Below are positions 6,365 to 63,616 of a DNA stretch of 64,000 nucleotides, piece by piece. The DNA comes from Megamonas hypermegale (GTDB lineage Bacteria > Bacillota > Negativicutes > Selenomonadales > Selenomonadaceae): the NCBI RefSeq assembly GCF_900187035.1, contig NZ_LT906446.1, positions 868,001-932,000 on the forward strand. The letters run 5' to 3'. How positions within the stretch are numbered: position 1 is the first letter of the stretch; every line of letters begins with the position of its first letter. Position numbers and translations under genes: made by a program. The notes beneath the pieces were generated by a model, which saw only the letters and a list, made by a program, of their open reading frames with translations, had not been told where the DNA came from and did not search any database.

Positions 6365-7054
6365 TTGATTAAAGTTAAACTTATAAAGCATACTGAACAA
6401 CCAGAAAAAACGGTAGCAATGGCTGCGCGTCTCTGTTATTCTCCTTGTGGAGCAGAAGAACTCGAGGAAAAGATGACTGATGAACAGGTTGAAAAACTCG
6501 TTCAAAAAATCATCAGTATGGGTCATGCTTCTACGATGGAACATGTTACTTTTACTTTTGCTATTGAAGGTATTTCTCGCGTACTCAGTCATCAATTAGT
6601 ACGTCATCGTATTGCATCATATTCTCAACAATCCCAACGTTATGTCAGTGAACATGATTTTGAATATATTTTACCTCCTTCTATTGCTCAAAATCCTCAA
6701 GCTAAGGAGAAATTTACTTCTTTAATGGATACAATCCGCAAGACTTATGATGAACTTGCAAATATGAACATTCCTAAAGAAGATGCTCGTTACGTTCTGG
6801 CTAATGCTACTGAAACAAAAATTTTAGCAACGTTTAATGCTCGTTCTTTATTGAATTTCTTTTCACTTCGCTGCTGCAATCGCGCTCAATGGGAAATTCG
6901 CGAAATGGCTTATTTAATGTTAGCTGAAGTGAAAAAAGTTGCACCATTATTATTTAAAAATGCTGGTGCTTCTTGCGTTCGCACTGGTCGTTGCCCAGAA
7001 GGCGCTATGACTTGTGGAAAACTTCAAGAAATGCTTAAATTACGCGAAAAATAA
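6365..7054 (+). CDS. thyX: Flavin-dependent thymidylate synthase
   Basis: ThyX makes dTMP from dUMP using FAD, NAD(P)H and methylene-tetrahydrofolate. The diagnostic ThyX motif RHRxxSxxxxSxR is present as [13 protein letters not shown] (residues 80-92). The protein is 229 residues, normal for the family. The start is TTG at 6365, preceded by AGGGAGAG; no ATG lies nearby in frame. A downstream C-terminal Cys-rich tail ([15 protein letters not shown]) is seen in clostridial relatives. No thyA is seen in the window. Confidence 0.95.
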
Positions 7055-7156
7055 TTTTTCAATCCTCTAGCAGGTATTTAATTGTTTGTTATATAATATA
7101 GAATAAGAAATGTATTTGCATCAACGTGATAGTTAAATGCTAAAGGAGGAATTTTC

Positions 7157-7582
7157 ATGAAAATTATCTTGGCTGTATTCGTTATGTTGGGCTTTTTAGG
7201 CTTTTATGCTAATCCTATGGTTGAAGCTACTGATAATCCAATCAGTGTGGAAAATCATTCAGCTTATACAAAAATCACACCAGAACAAGCTAAAGCTATT
7301 ATGGATGATGAAACTTCCAACTGTATCATCATTGATGTTCGTTCATTAGATGAATACAATAGCGGTCATATACCAAATGCTGTATCATTGCCAAATGAAA
7401 CAATCACATCTGATAATCCTCAAGTAACTGCTATTTTACCTGACAAAGACCAAACTATTTTAGTTTATTGCCGCAGCGGTAAACGCAGTAAACAAGCTTC
7501 TGATAAATTAGTAGCTCTTGGATATACTAATATTTGTGATATCGGCGGTATTATGAATTGGCCATATGAAGTTGTAAAATAA
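7157..7582 (+). CDS. Exported rhodanese-domain protein
   Basis: A signal peptide (hydrophobic residues 3-17, likely cleavage near 24) precedes one rhodanese domain. The catalytic loop is CRSGKRS with C105, the cysteine that carries the persulfide in active sulfurtransferases. The upstream DVRSLDEYNSGHIPNA motif is typical. At 141 residues it is a single-domain, probably extracytoplasmic sulfur or redox protein. The physiological sulfur acceptor is not indicated by neighbours. AAAGGAGGAATTTTC gives a strong ribosome site before ATG 7157. Confidence 0.9.
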   Translation: MKIILAVFVMLGFLGFYANPMVEATDNPISVENHSAYTKITPEQAKAIMDDETSNCIIIDVRSLDEYNSGHIPNAVSLPNETITSDNPQVTAILPDKDQTILVYCRSGKRSKQASDKLVALGYTNICDIGGIMNWPYEVVK

Positions 7583-7598
7583 CTCGAAAATTATATTG

Positions 7599-7633
7599 CT
7601 ACATTGCATAAAATGCAAATTTATGTGATGTAG
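7599..7633 (+). terminator. Terminator after the rhodanese gene
   Basis: A two-part stem is seen: CTACAT pairs with ATGTAG, and inside it CATAAA pairs with TTTATG. TTTTCTTTT follows. Confidence 0.75.
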
Positions 7634-7678
7634 TTTTCTTTTATCAGTATCAATAAATAATTTAAAAGGAGAAATTAA

Positions 7679-8524
7679 ATGCGTCCTACAAAAAATAAAC
7701 CTAAAAATAAAATGTCTACTAAAACTCGTTCAACTCGAAAAGCACCTGTAAATAAACCGGTAAGACCTAAAAAAATGGAATTAAGTGAAGATATCTTATT
7801 AGGTAGAAATGCTGTGCGCGAAGCTATTAAGAGCGGTCGTTCCATCAATCGCATTTTGATTGCTGAAGGTTCTCATGGTGGTTCAATTTCAGAAATCATC
7901 AACTTAGCTAAAGAACGCCATTTGATTTTACAAAGCATTTCTAGCGATAAATTAGATGCCCTTTGCGCAGGTCAACGCCATCAAGGTATTGTGGCATATG
8001 CTGCTCCTGTTGATTATGTAGAACTTGAAGATATTTTAAATTTAGCTAAAGACCGCAACGAAGACCCATTCATCATCTTATTAGATGAATTAGAAGACCC
8101 ACATAATCTTGGCGCTATTTTGCGTACGGCTGATGCTGTTGGCGCTCATGGTATTTTAATTCCTAAACATCGCAGTTGCCCATTATCTTCTGTTGTTGCA
8201 AAAACTTCTGCTGGTGCATTGGAATACGTTCCTGTTGCTCGTATCGGCAATGTAGTACAGACTTTAGATGAATTAAAAAAACAAGGACTTTGGGTTGCTG
8301 GTGCTGATATGGACGGCAAAGAAACTTATTACGAAGCTAATTTGACTGGTCCTATCGTTCTCGTCATCGGTAGCGAAGGCAGAGGCATAAGCCGTCTTAC
8401 AAAAGAAGCTTGCGATTTCATCGTAAATATCCCAATGCGCGGCAAAGTAAATTCTCTAAACGCTTCTAATGCAGCAGCTATTTTAGCTTATGAAATATTA
8501 AAACAACGCACTTTACAAAAATAA
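7679..8524 (+). CDS. rlmB: 23S rRNA (guanosine-2'-O-)-methyltransferase, TrmH family
   Basis: This SPOUT-class enzyme methylates the 2'-OH of a guanosine in 23S rRNA. A basic N-terminal tail of about 38 residues precedes the substrate-binding domain (LLGRNAVREAIKSGRSINRI). The knotted catalytic domain follows with three hallmarks: LDELEDPHNLGAILRTADAV (motif 1), VIGSEGRGISRL (motif 2) and IPMRGKVNSLNASNAAAI (motif 3). The lysine-rich N-tail is longer than in E. coli RlmB. AAAGGAG precedes ATG 7679. A related TrmH enzyme with another rRNA target is possible. Confidence 0.9.
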   Translation: MRPTKNKPKNKMSTKTRSTRKAPVNKPVRPKKMELSEDILLGRNAVREAIKSGRSINRILIAEGSHGGSISEIINLAKERHLILQSISSDKLDALCAGQRHQGIVAYAAPVDYVELEDILNLAKDRNEDPFIILLDELEDPHNLGAILRTADAVGAHGILIPKHRSCPLSSVVAKTSAGALEYVPVARIGNVVQTLDELKKQGLWVAGADMDGKETYYEANLTGPIVLVIGSEGRGISRLTKEACDFIVNIPMRGKVNSLNASNAAAILAYEILKQRTLQK

Positions 8525-8529
8525 TTTTT

Positions 8530-8557
8530 AAGGCAATAGATATAATTCTATTGCCTT
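8530..8557 (+). terminator. Terminator of rlmB
   Basis: A perfect 10-bp inverted repeat (AAGGCAATAG with CTATTGCCTT) and an 8-nt loop are followed by TTATTTACT. Confidence 0.85.
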
Positions 8558-8692
8558 TTATTTACTATCATCATTTTATATAAATTTAACGTATTATTTG
8601 CATAAACTTCATTAATTTTACACCATCAAAAGTCTATAATATAAAAAATCAAATTTTATATTACCAATAAAAATTTAACTTACAATATAAAA

Positions 8693-9754: not shown

Positions 9755-9923
9755 AAAAATGCCCCTTTCTAATCTCATTTAAAATATTATACCAAATTAA
9801 TTAATCTTTTATTCAATCTCTCAATCAGTTTACTATTCTGCTAATGCAAGATATTCTGCGTTATATATTTTTATGATATAATAATATAATTGTATTTTTA
9901 TATTATTTAAAGGTGTGTTTTTA

Positions 9924-11831
9924 ATGATTTTAACTATAGAAAATCTCTGTAAAACGTATGGAGAAAAAGTTTTATTCAATAATGTAAATTTCAGCTTATC
10001 AGACGGCGATAAAGTTGGGATTGTAGGTGTTAACGGCACAGGTAAATCCACTTTTATTAAGGTCATTGCTGGCATTGTACCAAAAGACAGTGGCACTATA
10101 ACGACTGGCAAAAATACAAAAATATCTTATCTTGAACAAGATAAAGTATTTGAGCCAGAACATACCGTTTTAATGGAAGTATTTAAAGGTACTCAGCCAT
10201 TAATGCGCGCTCTTTATGATTATGAACTTGCACTGCAAGCCAGTCAAAAAAATCCTCAAGATATAGATTTACAAAAAAAGATAATCACTTTGAGCAGTAA
10301 AATCGATGAATTAAACGGCTGGCAACTGGAAAGCGATGCTAAAACTATTTTGACAAAACTCGGTATAATGGATTTTAGTGCCAAGACAAAGACGCTTTCC
10401 GGCGGACAACAAAAAAGATTGGCACTCGCTACAGCATTAATACAACCATGTGATTTACTCCTCTTAGACGAACCGACAAACCATTTAGATAGTGAAACGA
10501 TTGCTTGGCTGGAAGAATATCTACGCAAATTGAAAACGGCTTTAATCATGGTCACACATGACCGCTATTTTCTCGATTCAGTAGCTACAAAGATTTTAGA
10601 ACTCGATAAAGGTAATTCATATATTTACACGGGCAATTATACGCAATTTCTCGAATTAAAAAATCAGCGTTTAGAACGCGAAGAAGCTTCTGAACAGAAA
10701 CGACAAAACTTTTTGCGCAATGAATTAAAATGGATTAGACGTGGTGCACAGGCTCGTTCTACAAAACAACGTGCTCGTATTCAGCGCTTTGAGGAAGTAA
10801 AAAACCAAAAGGTGAATATCGACCATAGTAAAATAGAAATCGGCATGGCTACATCTCGTTTAGGACGTACAGTCATTGAACTGGAAAATGTAAATTATGC
10901 TGTAGATGATAAAACCATCGTCAAAGATTTCACTTATACCGTATTACGCAATGACCGCATCGGCATTTTAGGACCGAACGGCTCAGGCAAAACAACATTA
11001 TTAAATATAATTGCCGGCAAACTTGCGCCAACTTCCGGCACTGTCACAATCGGTCAAACCGTGAAAATCGGCTATTTCACACAAAAAAATATCGCTATGG
11101 ATGAAAGATTGCGCCCTATTGAATATATAAAAGAAGAAGCCAATTATTTAACCCTAGCTGATGGCACAAAATTAAGTGCTTCACAACTCATGGAAAGATT
11201 TCTTTTCCCTGGTACATTGCAATGGACGCCAATCGCTAAATTATCTGGTGGCGAAAAACGCCGCTTGTATTTACTGCGCATCTTGATGAGTGCGCCAAAT
11301 GTGCTTTTACTCGATGAACCCACTAACGATTTAGATTTAGAAACCATGTCCATTTTGGAAGAATTCATTGATAATTTCAATGGTGCTATCATTTTCGTAT
11401 CGCATGACCGCTTTTTCATTGACCGCTTAGCTGATAAGGTATTCGTATACCAAAAAGACGGCAGTTTGCGTCAATATCCAGGTGGCTATTCTTATTATAA
11501 AGGCATTGAAGAACAAGAACAGCAAGCCTTACAAGTACAAACACAGCAATCCATGCCTAAAAAAGAAGTTAAACCAGCTAAAACACGCGAAAAAGCTAAT
11601 GCACCGAAAAAACTTTCTTTTAAAGAACAACGCGAATATGATGAAATAGAAGCCATCATAGCTGAAACAGAAGGCGAATTGAAAGTAGTTCAACTGCAAA
11701 TGACACAAAACGCTTCTGATTATGGCAAACTCAATGAATTAACTAAAGAAGAAACTCGTCTACAAGAAAAACTAGATTATTTGATGGAACGTTGGGCTTA
11801 TTTAGAAGAGATAGTTGAACAAATGCAATAA
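9924..11831 (+). CDS. ABC-F ATPase, Uup-like
   Basis: This soluble tandem ATPase has two ABC domains: GVNGTGKST with LSGGQQKRLALA, then GPNGSGKTT with LSGGEKRRLYLL. The linker carries basic helices (NELKWIRRGAQARSTKQRAR) as in ABC-F proteins, and there are no membrane spans. A charged coiled coil fills about residues 555-635, the C-terminal domain typical of Uup, which binds branched DNA. ABC-F proteins act on ribosomes, so translation and DNA-linked roles are both possible. ATG 9924 follows AAAGG by 10 nt; an upstream GTG at 9915 overlaps that site. Confidence 0.9.
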   Translation: MILTIENLCKTYGEKVLFNNVNFSLSDGDKVGIVGVNGTGKSTFIKVIAGIVPKDSGTITTGKNTKISYLEQDKVFEPEHTVLMEVFKGTQPLMRALYDYELALQASQKNPQDIDLQKKIITLSSKIDELNGWQLESDAKTILTKLGIMDFSAKTKTLSGGQQKRLALATALIQPCDLLLLDEPTNHLDSETIAWLEEYLRKLKTALIMVTHDRYFLDSVATKILELDKGNSYIYTGNYTQFLELKNQRLEREEASEQKRQNFLRNELKWIRRGAQARSTKQRARIQRFEEVKNQKVNIDHSKIEIGMATSRLGRTVIELENVNYAVDDKTIVKDFTYTVLRNDRIGILGPNGSGKTTLLNIIAGKLAPTSGTVTIGQTVKIGYFTQKNIAMDERLRPIEYIKEEANYLTLADGTKLSASQLMERFLFPGTLQWTPIAKLSGGEKRRLYLLRILMSAPNVLLLDEPTNDLDLETMSILEEFIDNFNGAIIFVSHDRFFIDRLADKVFVYQKDGSLRQYPGGYSYYKGIEEQEQQALQVQTQQSMPKKEVKPAKTREKANAPKKLSFKEQREYDEIEAIIAETEGELKVVQLQMTQNASDYGKLNELTKEETRLQEKLDYLMERWAYLEEIVEQMQ

Positions 11832-56053: not shown

Positions 56054-57238
56054 ATGACTAATAGAATGTTATTCACTTCTGAATCTGTTACTGAAGGTCA
56101 TCCTGATAAAGTAGCAGACCAGATTTCTGACAGTATCCTTGATGCTATTTTGGCTAAAGACCCTAACGGTCGTGTAGCTTGCGAAACTTTTGCTATGACA
56201 GGTCAAATTCACATCGCTGGTGAAATATCCACTAACTGCTATGTAGATATTCCATCTATCGTTCGTGAAACAATTCGTAAAATCGGTTACACAAGAGCAA
56301 AATTTGGTTTAGACTGCGAAACTTGCGGTATTTCCATATCTATCGACGAACAATCCCCAGATATCGCTATGGGCGTAGATAAATCTTTGGAAGCTAAAGA
56401 AGGTCAAGCTAATGAAGATGACCTCGGTGCAGGTGACCAAGGTATGATGTTTGGCTATGCTACAAATGAAACTCCAGAATACATGCCTCTTCCAATCGCT
56501 CTTGCTCATAAATTAGCAAGACGCTTGACTGAAGTTAGAAAAAGCGGTGAACTTTCCTACCTTCGTCCAGACGGAAAAACTCAGGTTACTATCGTTTATG
56601 AAAATGGTAAACCTGTTGCTGTAGATACTATCGTAATTTCTACTCAACATGACCCAGATGTTACTTTAGAACAAATCAAAAAAGATATCATCGAAAAAGT
56701 AATCAAACCTGTTGTTCCTGCTGATTTATTAACAGCTGACACAAAATACTTCATCAATCCTACTGGTAAATTTGTTATCGGTGGTCCACAAGGTGATACT
56801 GGTCTTACTGGCCGTAAAATCATCGTTGATACTTATGGCGGTATGGCTCGTCATGGTGGCGGAGCATTCTCCGGTAAAGACCCAACGAAAGTTGACCGTT
56901 CCGCAGCTTATGCAGCTCGTTATGTAGCTAAAAATATCGTAGCTGCTGGTCTTGCAGATAAATGCGAAATTCAGCTTGCTTACGCTATCGGCGTTGCAAA
57001 ACCTGTATCTATCAGCATCAATACATTCGGTACAGGCAAAATCAGTGAAGACGCTATCACAAAACTCGTACAAGACAATTTTGACCTTCGTCCAGCTGGT
57101 ATCATTAAAGAATTAGACTTACGTCGTCCAATCTACGCTCAAACAGCTGCTTATGGTCATTTTGGTCGTACAGATGTAGACCTTCCTTGGGAACATACTG
57201 ATAAAGCTGAAACATTAAGAAAACAAGCTGGTTTATAA
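56054..57238 (+). CDS. metK: S-adenosylmethionine synthetase
   Basis: This makes SAM from methionine and ATP. It has 394 residues. [19 protein letters not shown] opens the protein, [12 protein letters not shown] and [20 protein letters not shown] are the two PROSITE-type signatures, and it ends [32 protein letters not shown] precedes the ATG. Transcription is gated by the upstream riboswitch. Confidence 0.97.
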
Positions 57239-57295: not shown

Positions 57296-57565
57296 TTATC
57301 TATAACGATGATGTCTAGGTGGTGGCGGTGGTGCATCTGGTCTTCTATGATCATCTTTCCATCTATGCTGTGGAGGAGGTGGTGTTCTTTTCCAACTAGG
57401 TCCTTTATGATGAGATGGAGGAGGTGCCTCTATTCTATGTCTAGGCGGTGGTGGCGGTGGTGCTGCTTCCGTTGTGCTAGCACTTATTACATAACCGATT
57501 GGTGTCGCCAAAAAACATGCCATAGTCAAAATACCGACAGTCTTTTTGATTTTGTCTTTCAACAT
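57296..57565 (-). CDS. Exported Pro/His-rich small protein
   Basis: This 89-residue protein has a signal peptide (VGILTMACFLATPIGYVISA). The mature part is composed mainly of proline, histidine and arginine (APPPPPPRHRIEAPPPSHH, TPPPPQHRW, DAPPPPPRHHRYR). It has no recognisable domain. Polyproline blocks suggest an extended wall- or periplasm-spanning chain, and the histidines could bind metal ions. ATG 57565 follows GGGAG by 8 nt; an ATG at 57583 lies before that site. Function is unknown. Confidence 0.75.
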   Translation of the reverse strand: MLKDKIKKTVGILTMACFLATPIGYVISASTTEAAPPPPPPRHRIEAPPPSHHKGPSWKRTPPPPQHRWKDDHRRPDAPPPPPRHHRYR

Positions 57566-57652
57566 ACGAAAAACTCCCTTCATTAATATTTACATATGAA
57601 TATTATTCGTCTTACAAACAGCTTTATCCTTCAAAAATATATAGTTTAATGA

Positions 57653-58138
57653 TTAATATCTATATTCACCGTAACCAGCTAAACCGCCCGGGAATACGGA
57701 CGGGTCTATATATCCCTGCTTTCCGTCCATATACAGCGTTATCCACTGATGCGACCATTCATTTTCATTCACGTGTACATATTCATAACCCATAAAATCC
57801 AAAACTCTACCCATAGCCCGTACCATTCCGGCGCAGGTCATATTACCTGAAATAAACACACCATACGGTGAACGATAATATTTGTTTTCGTCATTACCGT
57901 ATCTGCATTTTGCACCGTAGGCGGTTACTATTTCCGCTGCTGCCCGTACTTTTTGCAAATCCGTTGTATATGCGGAATTGGACATAACTTCATCCGCTAT
58001 GGATTTTGCAATAGCATCAGCTTGCGCCGCCTGCTCAGCGGTGATGGTGCTTCCGTAATAATCATGAGCGGCGGCAACAGAAAATCCATTGAAAGAAAAT
58101 ACCACCATTAACGCCAATACAAACACTAATTTTTGCAT
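57653..58138 (-). CDS. Secreted transglutaminase-like cysteine protein
   Basis: A signal peptide (1-24, LALMVVFSFNGFSVAAA) leads to a compact transglutaminase-like domain of about 135 residues. The catalytic triad is visible: C102 in NMTCAGMVRA, H130 in WSHQWITLY and D145 in GYIDPS. Such domains act as cysteine peptidases or amidases outside the cell. ATG 58138 follows GGAGTGATTTTT. It is the last gene of a packed operon, 12 bp after the upstream gene. Local G+C is high (30 of 60 at 57661-57720), unlike flanks. Confidence 0.8.
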   Translation of the reverse strand: MQKLVFVLALMVVFSFNGFSVAAAHDYYGSTITAEQAAQADAIAKSIADEVMSNSAYTTDLQKVRAAAEIVTAYGAKCRYGNDENKYYRSPYGVFISGNMTCAGMVRAMGRVLDFMGYEYVHVNENEWSHQWITLYMDGKQGYIDPSVFPGGLAGYGEYRY

Positions 58139-58150
58139 AAAAATCACTCC

Positions 58151-58678
58151 TTATTTTGTTGGTGAGATTGTACAGAATATACGATATAATTTAATATCCG
58201 AGTCTGGAACATCCAGCGGATTTAAATCGACCAGTAAAACAACGGTAGAATGTTCTCCTCGCCAGGTATAATAGGCGATTTTATCTTCTTTTGAACCGTC
58301 AATAGTATGTGTTTCGCCGAAACTTTTATTTATTCCATTTGCCAGTTTTACAAAACTTAAAGCAGCATATTCAGGTGAAGCCGCCGCAAAAAATCTGTTT
58401 ATCGAGCACAATTTGCCGTCTTTAAACTCCAGCTGTATATCAGGAGCAGCTAATATATCGTATTGTTCCAAACTGTTATCTTCATATTCAATCGTATAAA
58501 CCACTGAACCATCATCATTATTTTTAACAGATATCACCTCATATTTAGACAAAATATCATTAACATCTTCTCCAAAATAAAATTCTTTATAACCGTTCTC
58601 ATCTTTCGGAAAAGCCAGTGCAGTAGCTGAAATTATCATTATTCCTAAAATAATAAATATGTTAACTATTTTTTTCAT
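58151..58678 (-). CDS. Secreted SmpA/BLIP-like domain protein
   Basis: This has a signal peptide (about 1-22) and one domain of about 150 residues. FPKDENGYKEFYFGEDVNDIL matches the start of two paralogs upstream (ENGIDDFYFGQPIEEIQQQY). FYFG..-.-I followed by strands and IQLEFKDGKLCSI suggests an SmpA/BLIP-like fold; this is inference from pattern. The ATG overlaps the upstream stop as ATGA, so translation is coupled. Function is unknown. Confidence 0.72.
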   Translation of the reverse strand: MKKIVNIFIILGIMIISATALAFPKDENGYKEFYFGEDVNDILSKYEVISVKNNDDGSVVYTIEYEDNSLEQYDILAAPDIQLEFKDGKLCSINRFFAAASPEYAALSFVKLANGINKSFGETHTIDGSKEDKIAYYTWRGEHSTVVLLVDLNPLDVPDSDIKLYRIFCTISPTK

Positions 58679-59340
58679 ACAGACAACCTCTTAACAAATT
58701 CTTTACCGTCTATTATTACATCAAAATTTTGTTTTTCATCATTCCATTTTAAATAAATCTTACCTTCAAAGAATTCGTCTTCATGCAAATTTTTATCTTT
58801 TCTAAAATACCTCATAGTTAAAATATTATCTTGAACTTTTAAGTCTCCATAACTTATATCTTCAATGTTTTCATATTTAAAATATTTTTTCGTTATTTCT
58901 TCCGTATCAATATATTTTATAAATTTACCATTCGGCATTTTAGCTATAAAAGTATACATCAACGGAGGATTTATTGGATAAATAACTATTTCTGCATCAG
59001 TGTTTATTTTATATACATTATAAACAAAGTATTTTCTATCTATTGTATTTTTTATATCTTTATCACCAAATTTAAATATATCTTTATCCAAGTCATAATG
59101 AAAATATAATGCATCTTTTCCGTCACCCATACGAGCTATGCCTTTTTTATAACCCTTTTCTTCATCATTCTCATCAAAATAAACACCAGAATTAATAATT
59201 GTACCATAGTAAAATGTAAAACCTTGATTAGGAAATTGCCCAAAAGCGCCAATTTGAACTGGTTGCGAAAACTGCATAGCAAAACAGTTTCCTGAAAACA
59301 ACAAACATATAAACATCATCAATCCCAAAAACCTTCGCAT
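58675..59340 (-). CDS. Secreted paralog 3 of the QFSQP family
   Basis: The 221-residue protein has a signal peptide ending GNCFA and the family core: MQFSQPVQIGAFG, then IARMGDGKDALYFHY, KYIDTEEITKKYF and IYLKWNDEKQNFDV. Predicted beta-rich. I do not recognise a known family. The second ATG (59340) is chosen because AGGAG touches the first one. The gene runs into the SmpA-like gene by a 4-base overlap. Confidence 0.75.
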   Translation of the reverse strand: MRRFLGLMMFICLLFSGNCFAMQFSQPVQIGAFGQFPNQGFTFYYGTIINSGVYFDENDEEKGYKKGIARMGDGKDALYFHYDLDKDIFKFGDKDIKNTIDRKYFVYNVYKINTDAEIVIYPINPPLMYTFIAKMPNGKFIKYIDTEEITKKYFKYENIEDISYGDLKVQDNILTMRYFRKDKNLHEDEFFEGKIYLKWNDEKQNFDVIIDGKEFVKRLSV

Positions 59341-59357
59341 GATTTTCATCTCCTAAC

Positions 59358-60059
59358 TTAATTAATAACTTGTTTAACACTAAACCATTGTGCTTTATCG
59401 TCCCATTTAAAATAAAATTTCCCTTTTGTTCCCGAGCTGTAATAGTCAATAATTATCGTATCACCTTGCGTAGAGAGGTTTTTATATATAACATGAGTAT
59501 TTTCCCCAAAGTATCGTTTAGTTATTTCTTTCGTATCAATATACTTTACAAATTGTCTACTAAGAGAATTAATCTCCCTGCCAATAATAATATAATCGGC
59601 TTTTATATTATATATTGAGTATACAGAACGCGTTTCAAAACGGGTTTCATTGCCAATATGATTATGTTTCATATCGTATATTGGATATACAAAGCTAGTC
59701 TTACTGTATTGAATTTGATAAATATCACTGCTCCATATATCTTCCGATATAGTATTGTTCAGTGCATTACCGCCAATGTTTAAACATTTTTCCGTATTAT
59801 AATAAAGATATAAATCATCTGTTCCCTCACCAAAATGAGCAATTCCCTTTTCAGCGCCAAAAGTATCATCTTTTACATATCTTCTTCTAATCTCAGGAAA
59901 AAATTGCACGCTATTAGAAGCCGCTCCACTAATAAATACACCACCACCTTGTTTAAAATCTATCGTTCCAATTTTTAACGGCTGGGAAAACTGTATTGCA
60001 TAACAGGTTTCAGACAGTATAAAACACATACATAAAATTATTCCCCAAATTTTTGTCAT
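59358..60059 (-). CDS. Secreted paralog 2 of the QFSQP family
   Basis: The 233-residue protein has a signal peptide (ILCMCFILSETCYA). It shares the core IQFSQPLKIGTID, IAHFGEGTDDLYLYY, KYIDTKEITKRYF, NLSTQGDTIIIDYY and YFKWDDKAQWFSV with the other two copies. An insertion of about 25 residues in the middle (around 118-145) is not in them. Function is unknown. It lies 5 bp after paralog 1 and 17 bp before paralog 3. Confidence 0.75.
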   Translation of the reverse strand: MTKIWGIILCMCFILSETCYAIQFSQPLKIGTIDFKQGGGVFISGAASNSVQFFPEIRRRYVKDDTFGAEKGIAHFGEGTDDLYLYYNTEKCLNIGGNALNNTISEDIWSSDIYQIQYSKTSFVYPIYDMKHNHIGNETRFETRSVYSIYNIKADYIIIGREINSLSRQFVKYIDTKEITKRYFGENTHVIYKNLSTQGDTIIIDYYSSGTKGKFYFKWDDKAQWFSVKQVIN

Positions 60060-60064
60060 TTACA

Positions 60065-60751
60065 TCATCTCCCTGTATCATTGGAAATCCGTTTAACGTC
60101 GAACCATTGAGCTTTATCATTCCATTTGAAATGAATTTCACCCATTTCTCTTTTAAATGCACTATGTTTTTCATCAACACAGTTATATTTCATAATCAGG
60201 GTGTTTCCTTGTGTAGATAAGTTGTTATATCTAACAGTTACATCCGGAGGAAAATATTTTTCTGTTACTTCGTTTGTATCTATATAATTTATGAATATGC
60301 CGTTAGATTTTCTGCCTATAATAGTATATCCTTCCGGCGGATTGCGCGTCCTAATTATCTTATACGGTGTATATAATGGATATAATGTTAATCCTTCATC
60401 CGTGTTAATTTTGAAAAGAGTAAAATTAAGACCGTTTATAGAAACTGTATTTTTTAAATTTTCACTACCCAAATAAAACTTCGTCTTATCTTTTTTTCGA
60501 TAATAATGTACATACAAGGCATCTTCATCGTTTCCAAAACGTGCTAAACATTCCCAAGAAGGTGAGATAAAAACCTTTGTAGCATTATCAAAATTAATTC
60601 CCTGTGGATCTTTAAAAGAAAGAGAATGCCAAAGAGGAGGATGAAAAATTCCTATTGTTCCAATTTTTACTGGTTGAGAAAACTGCATAGCAAAACAATT
60701 TCCTGAAAACAGCAAAAATATAAATATCAACAAGCCTAAAATTTTTCGCAT
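60065..60751 (-). CDS. Secreted paralog 1 of the QFSQP family
   Basis: The 228-residue protein has a signal peptide ending GNCFA and then MQFSQPVKIGTIG. LARFGNDEDALYVHYY, NYIDTNEVTEKYF, NLSTQGNTLIMKY and HFKWNDKAQWFDV follow, aligning with paralogs 2 and 3. It is the first gene of the operon. ATGs at 60763, 60760 and 60751 are possible; 60751 matches the start MRK.. of the paralogs, but AAAGG is nearer the first two. Function is unknown. Confidence 0.73.
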   Translation of the reverse strand: MRKILGLLIFIFLLFSGNCFAMQFSQPVKIGTIGIFHPPLWHSLSFKDPQGINFDNATKVFISPSWECLARFGNDEDALYVHYYRKKDKTKFYLGSENLKNTVSINGLNFTLFKINTDEGLTLYPLYTPYKIIRTRNPPEGYTIIGRKSNGIFINYIDTNEVTEKYFPPDVTVRYNNLSTQGNTLIMKYNCVDEKHSAFKREMGEIHFKWNDKAQWFDVKRISNDTGR

Positions 60752-60785
60752 AAAATTCATCATCCTTTCTTATAAAACTAAAAAA

Positions 60786-60809
60786 AGCGGTGTTATATAA
60801 AACACCGCT
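60786..60809 (-). terminator. Terminator of the 62-residue membrane protein gene
   Basis: AGCGGTGTT pairs with AACACCGCT around 6 nt and is followed on the minus strand by TTTTTTAG. It separates the two clusters of secreted proteins. Confidence 0.9.
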
Positions 60810-60819
60810 AATAGCCACT

Positions 60820-61008
60820 TTACTTTTCCTTTTTATCTGTTATAAATAACACTTCATTAAAGTTTTCAACACATACTAATTCGTTTTTTATAACAAAAGA
60901 CGTCTTTTCCTCTTTTGAAGCTTCCTTTGCTGAAAAAAATGATAAAAATGAAAAAGCAATTGCTATACCAAATAAAATGAGTAATATACCTCTCACGATT
61001 GGGTTCAT
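60820..61008 (-). CDS. Small single-span membrane protein
   Basis: This 62-residue protein has an N-terminal helix (GILLILFGIAIAFSFLSFF) and a charged 35-residue tail. No family is recognised. AAAAGGAGAACTTTT precedes the ATG. It lies after the two-domain family gene and ends at a terminator. Confidence 0.6.
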   Translation of the reverse strand: MNPIVRGILLILFGIAIAFSFLSFFSAKEASKEEKTSFVIKNELVCVENFNEVLFITDKKEK

Positions 61009-61084
61009 AAAAGTTCTCCTTTTAATTTACAAAATTTATTACTCATTGTAATTCTTTAACAAGTGTAATATATCCTTTACTATT

Positions 61085-61837
61085 TTAATCAAAAATACTC
61101 ATATTCATACCAGCTTCTTGTAAAGCTTCAGCATAATCTGGGTCATTTTGTAATTCTTGTTTAAAACTTGCTTTAAACTGTTCATTATTTTTTATTAGAT
61201 TTTCTAAACGATTAATTGCTTCTGGTGATGTTTTTAAATGCTCTGCATATTCTAAACGCTTAATTTTAGTAGCATTTTTTGCATATGGCATATAATAGAA
61301 CACTAAAAAGCCCTCTTCACCATCTGTAAATAATCTTGCTTGATAATCACCGTCTTGCCATGTATATCGTACTTTATTCGATATTGCTATACTACTTTTA
61401 GCTACTCCCCAATTATTAGTCAAAATTTCCTTTAACTTATCGCCATTTGCATCAAATTTAAATCGTACATTTTCTAATTTACCTTGATAAAATTCTAATC
61501 TAACATTTTTATCAAAATACACTCCATTTACATTTAAAGAATCCATTACTACATCATACGCTATAACATCATCTTCATCTAATTGTCTATCTGATTTTAC
61601 TAAATAATTATTTTCAGAGATTTTCTCTATAGATGTTCCCAATTCTATACGACATATTTTATATAATTGGTCTTGAATAGGATTCACAGAAGCCATGTCT
61701 TCCCAACTAGGAAAATTATTTTTTGATGAATAATAATCTACATTTACATTTGATGGCAAAGCATTGGTTATGGATGGTAGACTTATCAGTATCATCAAAA
61801 CAATGAATGCAATTTGTCTTATTAATATTTTTTGCAT
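61085..61837 (-). CDS. Secreted domain-B protein, paralog of the fused gene's C-terminal half
   Basis: A signal peptide (about 1-26) precedes 224 residues that align along their length with residues 170-391 of the fused protein at 62441-63616. Shared landmarks are NPIQDQLYKICRIELGTSIE, LEFYQGKLENVRFKF, YTWQDGDYQARL, FYYMPY and the C-terminal LENLIKNNEQFK ... EAGMNMSIFD. No known family is recognised. It starts 21 bp after the domain-A gene with AAGGAG before the ATG. Confidence 0.75.
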   Translation of the reverse strand: MQKILIRQIAFIVLMILISLPSITNALPSNVNVDYYSSKNNFPSWEDMASVNPIQDQLYKICRIELGTSIEKISENNYLVKSDRQLDEDDVIAYDVVMDSLNVNGVYFDKNVRLEFYQGKLENVRFKFDANGDKLKEILTNNWGVAKSSIAISNKVRYTWQDGDYQARLFTDGEEGFLVFYYMPYAKNATKIKRLEYAEHLKTSPEAINRLENLIKNNEQFKASFKQELQNDPDYAEALQEAGMNMSIFD

Positions 61838-61858: not shown

Positions 61859-62413
61859 TTACTTTTGGGAAGCCACCATTTGCTTAAATACTTTTAGTTC
61901 ATTTTCTCCCATATATTTTTCATACATATAAACGGATACATACGCAGTATTTTTATTATTGCTATTTATAGAAGAAAGTGCTTCTGTTAAATCTATATTT
62001 GCTATACCTAAAAATATTTTTCCAGTAAACCACGTTGCCATAAAATCATTACCTAGAGGCTTACCATATTGCACAGAAGCAAAACTCACTACATTTTTAT
62101 ACAATTCAGTAGTTTCAGCAGGAGTTGTTGTTACTGAAGTAAAAGATATTCCACATAAATTATTATTTTTAAATTCTAGAGTAATAGGCTGGTCTACTTT
62201 TATATCATAAAAATTTAAAGAGAGCACTTGTGCTTCATATTTTGTTATGCCTTCTTCTTCATCATATTCTTCATTTAATAGCTCATATTGCTGCTGAATT
62301 TCTTCTATCGGCTGACCGAAATAAAAATCATCAATGCCATTTTCATGCGGGCTAGCAAAAGAACTAGCTGAAAAAAGACAAAGTATACTTAATATCAAAA
62401 AAATTTTTCTCAT
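61859..62413 (-). CDS. Secreted domain-A protein (SmpA/BLIP-like)
   Basis: A signal peptide ends near FASP, followed by HENGIDDFYFGQPIEEIQQQ, identical over 20 residues to the fused neighbour. PITLEFKNNNLCGISF and SFASVQYGKP also match. The 184-residue protein equals the N-terminal half of the fused gene at 62441-63616. An SmpA/BLIP-like fold is inferred from the repeated FYFG..IEEI and strand pattern. The second ATG (62413) is preferred because AAGGAG is too close to the one at 62419. Confidence 0.75.
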   Translation of the reverse strand: MRKIFLILSILCLFSASSFASPHENGIDDFYFGQPIEEIQQQYELLNEEYDEEEGITKYEAQVLSLNFYDIKVDQPITLEFKNNNLCGISFTSVTTTPAETTELYKNVVSFASVQYGKPLGNDFMATWFTGKIFLGIANIDLTEALSSINSNNKNTAYVSVYMYEKYMGENELKVFKQMVASQK

Positions 62414-62440
62414 ACTCATCCTCTCCTTAGATAAAATATC

Positions 62441-63616
62441 TTAATCGAATATGCTCATATCCATACCAGCATCTTTTAAAGCTTGTTCATATTCAGGAAT
62501 ATTTTTCATTTGACTTTTAAAATTTTCTTTATACTGAGGATTTTCTTTTATCAGATTTTCCAAATAATGCATATTTTGAGGTGATAATTTCAAACCTTTT
62601 GCATATTTCAATAATGAAATCTTCGTTATTTCCTGTTGGTATGGTACATAGTAAAAATTTAAATGCCCTCTACCTTCATATAATAATAAGTTCAATCCAT
62701 AATCACCATTTATCCATGAATAATTCAACGCACTAAAAGAAGCCATATCAACCGTTTCTGCTATTGGAGTGCCTAAATTTTCTATCAGATGATTTTTTAG
62801 CTGTACTCCATCTCCTGTAAACATTAAAAACACATTATTCAAATAATTTTTATAAAAACTCAATTCTGCTTTATCTTCAAAATCTACTCCATACATATAT
62901 TGTTCTATTAATGATACACGATAACCCATTATATCCTTATTTTTCATTTGTGTTGGCATAGGATTTCTTATTAAATGAACTCTATTAGAAGTATCTTCTA
63001 ATGAAGCATTTAATTCAACTTTACATAATACATATAATTGTGCTTGTATTGGATTCATATTCTTTGGAAGTTCTATAATAGAAATAGGATTATCTTTTAC
63101 TTCAGAAAAAGATGTATTCTCTGTCTCTGAAATATTTTCAGATATAGTGTTTTCATTCATACTAAAAGATAAATACGCTAAATTATCCTTTACATTATAC
63201 GTCATGCACAAAAATATCTTATCAGTAATCCATTCCATACGATTTTTATGAAATGAACTATTACCATATTGTACTGAAGCAAAATTAGCAATCATTTTTT
63301 GCTGATTTTCTGCTTCAATTAATGAAACTGTATCAGTATTAAATGTTATTTTATATAATCTATTATTTTTAAAACCTAAAGTAATTGGCTGACTAATTTC
63401 CACTCCATAAAAATTTAAAGAAGGAACTTGCGCCTTATAATAGATGACAGCACCATCTTCAACAGTGAATTCTTTATCAGTTAACTCATATTGCTGCTGA
63501 ATTTCTTCTATCGGCTGACCAAAATAAAAATCATCAATACCATTTTCATGCGGACTAGCAAAAGAAATAGATACCATAAAAAACAATGCTATCACTGTTA
63601 AAAATATTTTACGCAA
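62441..63616 (-). CDS. Secreted two-domain (A-B) protein
   Basis: This 391-residue protein has a signal peptide (1-20). Domain A (about 21-160) matches the separate downstream gene, and domain B (about 165-391) matches the gene after that. The linker (NISETENTSFSEVKDNP) is hydrophilic. The start is TTG 63616 with GGAGG 9 nt upstream; no nearby ATG is in frame. It ends AGMDMSIFD like its paralog. Function is unknown. The partial gene upstream is 27 bp away, so it is probably cotranscribed. Confidence 0.75.
   Translation of the reverse strand: MRKIFLTVIALFFMVSISFASPHENGIDDFYFGQPIEEIQQQYELTDKEFTVEDGAVIYYKAQVPSLNFYGVEISQPITLGFKNNRLYKITFNTDTVSLIEAENQQKMIANFASVQYGNSSFHKNRMEWITDKIFLCMTYNVKDNLAYLSFSMNENTISENISETENTSFSEVKDNPISIIELPKNMNPIQAQLYVLCKVELNASLEDTSNRVHLIRNPMPTQMKNKDIMGYRVSLIEQYMYGVDFEDKAELSFYKNYLNNVFLMFTGDGVQLKNHLIENLGTPIAETVDMASFSALNYSWINGDYGLNLLLYEGRGHLNFYYVPYQQEITKISLLKYAKGLKLSPQNMHYLENLIKENPQYKENFKSQMKNIPEYEQALKDAGMDMSIFD

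What the first reader, a model, noticed from the sequence alone, without database searches (positions are those of the whole stretch)
57653..60751. Packed operon of unknown secreted proteins with a transglutaminase-like enzyme
Five genes with gaps of 5, 17, -4 and 12 bp all carry signal peptides. They are three tandem paralogs (QFSQP, YIDTxE, KWnDkxQ landmarks), one SmpA/BLIP-like protein and one Cys-His-Asp transglutaminase-like protein. I know no described system with this make-up. Possible roles are an envelope-processing enzyme with binding or inhibitor partners, or a contact or host-directed system.
Basis: partly seen in the sequence, partly recalled or inferred. Interest (0 to 1): 0.75.

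Follow-up and report, generated by a model that had tools for sequence, protein, structure and literature searches.

The report
Accessory secreted-protein cassette with transglutaminase-like enzyme
A gut-type bacterium carries a discrete five-gene block of exported proteins, one with a transglutaminase fold, that the one other genome of its genus examined lacks; the set is not a conserved system, but the same kind of enzyme sits near three copies of the same unknown protein family in one unrelated genome too.

Summary
The five genes are real: minus strand, a ribosome-binding stretch each, gaps 5, 17, -4 and 12 bp, Sec-like signal peptides. The last gene (E) has a transglutaminase fold and an invariant Cys-His-Asp set. 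The three paralogs (P) belong to an unclassified exported family with matches in 75 of 380 genomes of the class, mostly single genes without E. The fourth protein (D) is of a domain type found almost only in this genome; no link to BamE was found. So the five-gene set is not a conserved system. It is a discrete accessory block: the one same-genus genome listed keeps remnants of both flanking small genes 6 bp apart, without the block. One result resists dismissal: in G199, of another family, three tandem P genes lie two genes from an E-family enzyme, with a conjugation gene nearby, and that enzyme is from a different branch. Best reading: an accessory envelope cassette whose recently acquired transglutaminase-fold enzyme acts outside the cytoplasm, with P as non-catalytic beta-rich partners. 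Function is inferred. Interest moderate.

The parts
60065..60751 (-). P1, exported beta-rich paralog (start 60751 or 60763)
59358..60059 (-). P2, exported paralog
58675..59349 (-).
58151..58678 (-). D, exported protein of a domain type with several copies in this genome; start overlaps P3 stop by 4 bp
57653..58138 (-). E, exported transglutaminase-fold protein with Cys-His-Asp set; GC 43% against 27-33% for the other four
57583..60925 (.). Extent of the discrete accessory block: the stretch absent between two flanking remnants in same-genus genome G007
   Evidence: G007 gap aligns to L005:1453-1582 and L005:4926-5076, 6 bp apart in G007; window position = L005 position + 56000
60786..60809 (-). 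Terminator-like hairpin with T run just upstream of P1
   Evidence: 3 such sites found, 2.2 expected by shuffling; folding z -2.6
57296..57583 (-). Small proline-rich exported protein, left flank; its 5' part remains in G007
60820..61008 (-). 62-aa membrane-type ORF, right flank; its 5' part remains in G007
61085..61837 (-). Exported-type protein related to part of 62441-63604
61859..62419 (-). D2, relative of D
62441..63604 (-). D-type domain fused to a 61085-61837-like part

Best explanation
The five genes form an accessory cassette of Sec-exported envelope proteins sitting between metK and priA, assembled from parts with different histories. Gene E is a transglutaminase-fold cysteine enzyme that works outside the cytoplasm: its Cys attacks an amide or isopeptide bond of an envelope protein or peptide and either hydrolyses it or passes the acyl group to an amine. 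The P proteins, which keep no catalytic-type residue, most likely bind a partner or ligand (substrate adaptors or envelope-bound targets), and D is another exported domain. Shown: genes, tight coupling, exported character by sequence, predicted transglutaminase fold, conserved Cys-His-Asp, absence of the block from the one same-genus genome, deviating composition of E, a second P-E neighbourhood in G199. Inferred: enzymatic activity, substrate, binding role of P, co-transcription, recent acquisition of E, and that E acts on or with P.
For: Tight spacing and a ribosome-binding stretch per gene. Fold of E: Foldseek 4xz7 (a TGase) E 4.2e-4, the only row at E 0.001 or better; VIA Z 11.1, rmsd 3.4 over 132 residues to S. 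pyogenes TglA (9crn), Z 10.5, rmsd 4.2 over 130 to 4xz7, then 3isr, transglutaminase 3 and a LapG complex chain at Z 8.2-8.4; model pLDDT 83.7. Cys78, His106, Trp108 and Asp121 (mature numbering) invariant in 8 of 8 aligned rows and matched in the G199 enzyme (alignment). P: 0 of 27 members match a Pfam family at E 0.01; the only invariant columns are two Gly, one Trp and one Phe; beta-rich model with one helix. Accessory nature: and no P, D or E match in G007. E deviates in composition: GC3 0.395 against 0.20-0.24 for P and D; nearest relatives a Selenomonas ruminantium MAG and a rumen-coassembly Lachnospiraceae MAG. P-E linkage: the only two strict triple P runs among 63 are those of G000 and G199, and these are the only P loci with an E-family ORF. 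Envelope setting of E relatives: CAP-domain proteins two genes away in G138 and G199, VanY and YkuD genes in the same loci.
Against: Neither E nor P needs the other: G138 and G082 have E but no P match, nearly all P genomes lack E, and none of the 9 named-genome loci with E shows a P match (four of the nine are short or end near the gene). G150 has three P genes within 3.6 kb, not strictly consecutive, without E. A terminator-like hairpin directly before P1 leaves no obvious promoter. No activity is tested. The P model is low-confidence (pLDDT 67) and its structural matches are at noise level.
Confidence: 0.45

Rival explanations
1. Bystander accretion: metK-priA is a variable site where unrelated genes for exported proteins collect; the five share transcription direction but no function.
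For: The site is about 14 kb in the own genome and 447 bp in G007. P is single in 52 of 63 runs and often lies among genes that read as housekeeping. Within 4 genes of P no neighbour family recurs in more than 7 of 45 genomes, and the six commonest have no signal peptide by my rule. E differs in composition from the other four.
Against: 4-bp stop-start overlap and very short gaps; the block is bounded as a unit; three tandem P genes near an E-family enzyme recur in G199.
Confidence: 0.33
2. Enzyme and inhibitor array: E is an antagonistic envelope-acting enzyme and the tandem, diverged P proteins are inhibitors or immunity proteins, with the many lone P genes acting as orphan immunity.
For: Tandem diverged P copies near E in two unrelated genomes and P copies without E elsewhere; the G199 stretch also carries a TIR-domain gene and a conjugation gene. 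Strings of non-identical immunity paralogs are described for the T7SS toxin EsaD (PMC9484751, start of abstract in a search listing).
Against: E relatives in G138 and in the 9 named loci have no P match nearby; E has no recognised delivery domain beyond a signal peptide; P copies often sit among housekeeping-type genes; no PADLOC hit and no Pfam family over cut-off.
Confidence: 0.12
3. LapG-like processing: E is a periplasmic protease that releases a large surface adhesin.
For: LapG chains are among the structural matches (4u65_E Z 8.2, 4fgq Z 7.4); the S. ruminantium relative lies directly behind a gene for a 1489-aa protein.
Against: No PF06035 match in the own genome, control positive in Caulobacter; no ORF over 500 aa in the window passes a simple RTX pattern, and the 1489-aa protein itself fails it.
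Confidence: 0.07

Closest known systems
Transglutaminase-like superfamily (Pfam PF01841; solved structures 4xz7, 9crn TglA, 3isr)
   Same: Predicted fold and Cys-His-Asp set
   Different: E is not recognised by PF01841 (the own-genome search finds only another gene, at G000:C1:1058998-1059279); E is 161 aa, little beyond the core domain
BTLCP family: LapG and HvyA (PF06035)
   Same: Sec-exported transglutaminase-fold cysteine enzymes; HvyA is periplasmic and mutants of C192, H226 and D241 (to A) are non-functional (passages of PMC4241560); LapG has a C-H-D triad (passages of PMC4359373)
   Different: No PF06035 match; no partner protein identified
Secreted transglutaminase-like proteins of Lachnospiraceae and other Clostridia (L070-L074)
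   Same: Same family as E by profile and tree
   Different: Those of L071-L074 are 256-499 aa and on the other deep branch; no P match in their loci
Tandem immunity paralogs (EsaG type; listing only, PMC9484751)
   Same: Strings of diverged paralogs, copies without the effector
   Different: P is exported, no toxin domain or delivery system identified, mostly single genes

Membership tests
Transglutaminase-like superfamily (E) | Transglutaminase fold | tested here: met
   AF2 model pLDDT 83.7; Foldseek 4xz7 E 4.2e-4; VIA Z 11.1, rmsd 3.4, 132 aligned to 9crn
Transglutaminase-like superfamily (E) | Cys, His, Asp in order | tested here: met
   Invariant in 8 of 8 rows of A4; geometry in the model not measured
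Transglutaminase-like superfamily (E) | PF01841 profile match | tested here: not met
   E no match; 1 of 8 rows of A4 weak, E 0.011, not E itself
Transglutaminase-like superfamily (E) | Amide hydrolysis or transamidation | not testable with these tools
   needs purified protein
BTLCP / LapG-HvyA (E) | PF06035 profile match | tested here: not met
   0 matches in own genome; control rang in 1 of 14, Caulobacter
BTLCP / LapG-HvyA (E) | LapD receptor in genome | tested here: inconclusive
   PF16448 no match, but no control rang
BTLCP / LapG-HvyA (E) | Calcium site | not tested
   -
BamE/SmpA (D) | Profile similarity to BamE | tested here: inconclusive
   hhalign of A6 (5 rows) with E. coli BamE probability 0.1; no Pfam family over cut-off; fold not predicted
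BLIP-like (D) | BLIP fold | not tested
   -
Toxin-immunity array (P with E) | Cognate effector beside most copies | tested here: not met
   E-family ORF in P loci of 2 genomes only, of 45 genomes with surveyed P loci
Toxin-immunity array (P with E) | P binds and inhibits E | not testable with these tools
   -
Conserved five-gene system | All five together in relatives | tested here: not met
   P 75 of 380 and E 4 of 380 class genomes; D 2 of 151 family genomes; D was not searched outside the family, but no other genome examined there has P, D and E

The most novel reading that the evidence does not exclude
E and P are the two halves of an exported system of Negativicutes that I found described nowhere in the searches made: a transglutaminase-fold enzyme paired with an array of diverged beta-rich partner or inhibitor proteins. 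It moves between families on mobile elements, with the enzyme half exchangeable (two deep E branches beside related P genes) and P copies persisting alone after the enzyme is lost.
Probability: 0.18. Interest if true: 0.65.

Novelty: new variant of a known kind. Interest (0 to 1): 0.4.

Why it matters
The P family is common, fast-diverging and without any family model among the members tested, in Negativicutes, which are diderm Bacillota with a poorly known envelope. If P binds the E enzyme or its substrate, the cassette would give a first function for the family and a handle on envelope protein processing in these bacteria. If not, it documents metK-priA as a variable site for exported-protein genes.

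Tried and rejected
Family libraries gave nothing usable for the five proteins (Pfam, NCBIfam 13, PADLOC 14, PHROGs 105). Weak Pfam rows were all below cut-off: DUF7263 (E 0.0022) and DUF7287 on the N-terminal half of E, DUF1616 and Hac8_like_N on D, DUF7145 on P2, PLCC on P3. PDB sequence search: none for E alone; profile hits for D (3lbb E 0.087), P (xylanase J E 0.5) and E (an antibody chain E 0.35) were judged chance. Structure matches of P1 (propeller proteins Z up to 8.6, cystatin-like designs Z 6.8-6.9) are at the level the tool calls common, with a model of pLDDT 67 from three rows; no fold is claimed. LapG/LapD was considered and not supported (13 papers listed, of which passages of one were read). 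An RTX link was tested by a simple pattern: such ORFs lie within 5 genes of a P gene in 4 loci of 3 genomes (G064, G145, G262), one more lies in L124 where no P gene was called, and the 1489-aa protein beside the G138 enzyme fails the pattern; not pursued. Phage and plasmid collections: E none in phages, 2 Lactobacillus amylolyticus plasmids at 35% over 70% of the query; P1 none in plasmids (P1 only); P profile none in viral contigs. Paper searches, listings seen only: Megamonas+transglutaminase 22 papers, 20 listed, clinical and diet titles; TglA+transglutaminase+Streptococcus pyogenes 0; transglutaminase-like+Negativicutes 0; Selenomonadaceae+transglutaminase 3; Megamonas hypermegale+complete genome 7; orphan immunity and related terms 6. 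These show no description of the cassette in the library searched; subscription papers are not held. Limits of the surveys: one search was given 67 loci, of which 59 held a P gene at E 1e-6 under a greedy ORF choice and 8 lost theirs (listed); the divergent P branch (L109-L111, L114-L120) and the loci of about 3.6 kb were left out. Profile searches find their own rows by construction: A2 holds G000, G138 and G082, so only G199 was new; A6 holds the G066 protein, which by D alone scored E 6.9e-4; A3 was built from genomes of the family search. The named-genome scan works from two short peptide patterns, so its 9 loci are a lower bound.
Full report
What is in the sequence. The five genes lie on the minus strand in the order P1 (60751 to 60065), P2, P3, D, E (58138 to 57653). 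All five N-termini pass a rough signal-peptide rule; I see no lipobox by eye. The genome has 2,230,342 bases in one contig.

Surroundings. The five genes are the downstream part of a minus-strand run between a gene that reads as metK (56054-57238, plus) and one that reads as priA (L005:15295-17718, plus; both names by eye), running from 57296 to about 70791. It also holds two D relatives, a protein over the Pfam cut-offs of CsgG, LpoB and FlgT_C, two proteins with LPP20 and FlgT_N matches below cut-off, and proline-rich proteins. A terminator-like hairpin lies at 60809-60786, just before P1 (where 3 such sites were found and 2.2 expected; folding z -2.6). With only about 20 bases between it and P1, the block probably depends on read-through or on a promoter I did not find.

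The block is a unit. G007 is the only same-genus genome listed in the searches. It has priA and metK 447 bp apart. That gap aligns to the own locus mainly in two pieces: window 57453-57582 (the start of the small proline-rich gene, 77%) and 60926-61076 (the start of the 62-aa ORF and the bases before it, 72%), with 6 bp between them in G007. A shorter match (43 columns, E 0.15) links the first piece also to the start of the other proline-rich gene, L005:13160-14791. So the stretch 57583-60925, which holds the five genes, is absent there as one piece, and the stretch beyond 61076 as another. Insertion in the own lineage or deletion in G007 cannot be told apart; insertion seems to me to need fewer special assumptions. 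G007 has no P, D or E match at E 0.001.

Gene E. Pfam misses it, although the same PF01841 search finds another transglutaminase-like gene elsewhere in the genome. The predicted structure (8 rows, pLDDT 83.7) has a transglutaminase fold: best Foldseek row 4xz7 at E 4.2e-4, the only one at or under 0.001, then its second chain at 0.003 and 3isr, LapG and TglA at 0.015 to 0.03; VIA Z 11.1 to TglA (9crn, rmsd 3.4, 132 residues) and 10.5 to 4xz7 (rmsd 4.2, 130 residues). Menin rows follow from E 0.05 in Foldseek, and menin and arylamine N-acetyltransferases appear below Z 8 in VIA. Cys78, His106, Gln107, Trp108 and Asp121 are invariant in 8 of 8 rows. Relatives: 4 of 380 genomes of the class, three of them rows of the profile, and 9 loci in named genomes, mainly Lachnospiraceae and other Clostridia plus Selenomonas (two of the nine, L069 and L076, are the contigs of G138 and G082 by length). 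The tree of 9 rows splits them into two branches, 100/99; the own E goes with a Selenomonas ruminantium MAG and a Lachnospiraceae MAG from a rumen co-assembly, the G199 enzyme with the other branch. E has 43% GC and GC3 0.395; P1-P3 and D have 27-33% and 0.20-0.24; four flanking genes have GC3 0.20-0.26. E is therefore probably a recent arrival from a donor richer in GC.

The P family. The profile finds P in 75 of 380 class genomes, 20 of 102 genera. In 249 genomes drawn from the phylum it finds 3, all of the own family. Part of the 75 are weak C-terminal matches to a divergent branch. None of 27 members has a Pfam family at E 0.01. Invariant columns are two glycines, one Trp and one Phe, which argues against an enzyme. 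The model of P1 from only the three window paralogs is beta-rich with a helix at 138-145 (pLDDT 67, pTM 0.69); structural matches are not meaningful. In 59 loci of 45 genomes (67 loci given), 76 P genes form 52 single, 9 double and 2 triple runs; same-strand neighbours 86 of 122; exported-looking neighbours 40 of 122, against 207 of 796 non-P genes overall, so no strong enrichment. Within 4 genes of P no neighbour family recurs in more than 7 of the 45 genomes, and the six commonest have no signal peptide by my rule.

Does P go with E? Mostly not: P nearly always lacks E, and G138 and G082 have E but no P match. Yet both genomes that have the two have them close together. In G199 (another family of the class), L078 holds three tandem P genes (6486-8601), a TPR protein, the E-family enzyme (9815-10753), an unknown and a CAP-domain protein, with TIR and YkuD genes on one side and a VirD4-like conjugation gene on the other. 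An enlarged E profile over 3,851 ORFs of 188 loci finds E in the P loci of these two genomes only, and they are also the only two with three consecutive P genes; G150 has three P genes with another gene between and no E. In the P tree (75 rows) the closest relative of the three own P genes is one of the G199 three (91/84, moderate support); the other two G199 copies are long branches of unsure place. As a rough sum of my own: with a 12-23 kb neighbourhood in genomes of 2.2-2.6 Mb, chance adjacency in both is about 5 in 100,000, but genes for exported proteins cluster, so the true figure is higher. Since the two enzymes come from different deep branches, the pairing was either made twice or the enzyme was exchanged. 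This is the one finding that keeps a functional link alive.

Gene D. By D alone the family search finds four places in the own genome and a weak one in G066 (E 6.9e-4). A profile of five rows finds ten places in the own genome, among them a second locus with a 492-aa protein carrying four matches (L186:6347-7825), and G066, itself a row; nothing in the other 149 of 151 family genomes. One own-genome copy is fused to a PdaC-type domain (L045:802-1881). No link to BamE was found.

Working model. E is exported and cuts or joins an amide bond on an envelope protein or peptide; P and D are exported non-catalytic partners. The envelope setting is suggested by CAP-domain proteins two genes from the E relatives in G138 and G199, and by VanY and YkuD genes in the same loci. 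The nearest functional precedents are periplasmic: HvyA, a transglutaminase homolog that restricts encapsulation and loses function when its C-H-D residues are changed to alanine (PMC4241560, passages), and LapG, a periplasmic protease with a C-H-D triad (PMC4359373, abstract start and passages). E does not match their Pfam family. No activity, binding or expression has been shown here.

Verdict. Observation largely right, 'SmpA/BLIP' not confirmed, 'system' not supported in general, and a real but thin case for an E-P link.

Noticed in passing
L078:3830-18790 (G199): Mobile-element-like stretch with VirD4-like conjugation gene, CAP-domain protein, transglutaminase-like enzyme, TPR protein, three tandem P genes, TIR-domain gene and L,D-transpeptidase domain gene.
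   Followed up: partly
L047:9161-11344 (G039), also L050, L057: Single P genes sit inside runs of housekeeping-type genes with tiny gaps, for example between genes that read as hisF and hisI (names by eye, no family search); G039 has 8 P matches. How an exported orphan gets into such runs is unexplained.
   Followed up: partly
L186:6347-8446 (own genome about 1478.3-1480.4 kb): 492-aa protein with four D-type matches next to a 204-aa one; D-type domains are multiplied in this genome.
   Followed up: no
L005:10188-13072 (beyond window end): CsgG/LpoB/FlgT_C-type protein and two proteins with sub-threshold LPP20/FlgT_N matches in the same run, reminiscent (recalled) of FlgO/P/T sets.
   Followed up: no
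L046:6583-15304 (G138, same contig as L069): E relative with an extra C-terminal part directly behind a gene for a 1489-aa protein, near a C-type lectin plus CAP protein and a VanY enzyme.
   Followed up: partly
L109:6460-7722, L110:5757-7019, L117:6625-7887: Divergent P branch (210 aa) next to the same kind of second exported-looking protein (204 aa) in each of these three loci.
   Followed up: no
L005:13160-14791: Proline-rich exported-type protein with 84-nt tandem repeats; its N-terminus resembles that of 57296-57583.
   Followed up: no
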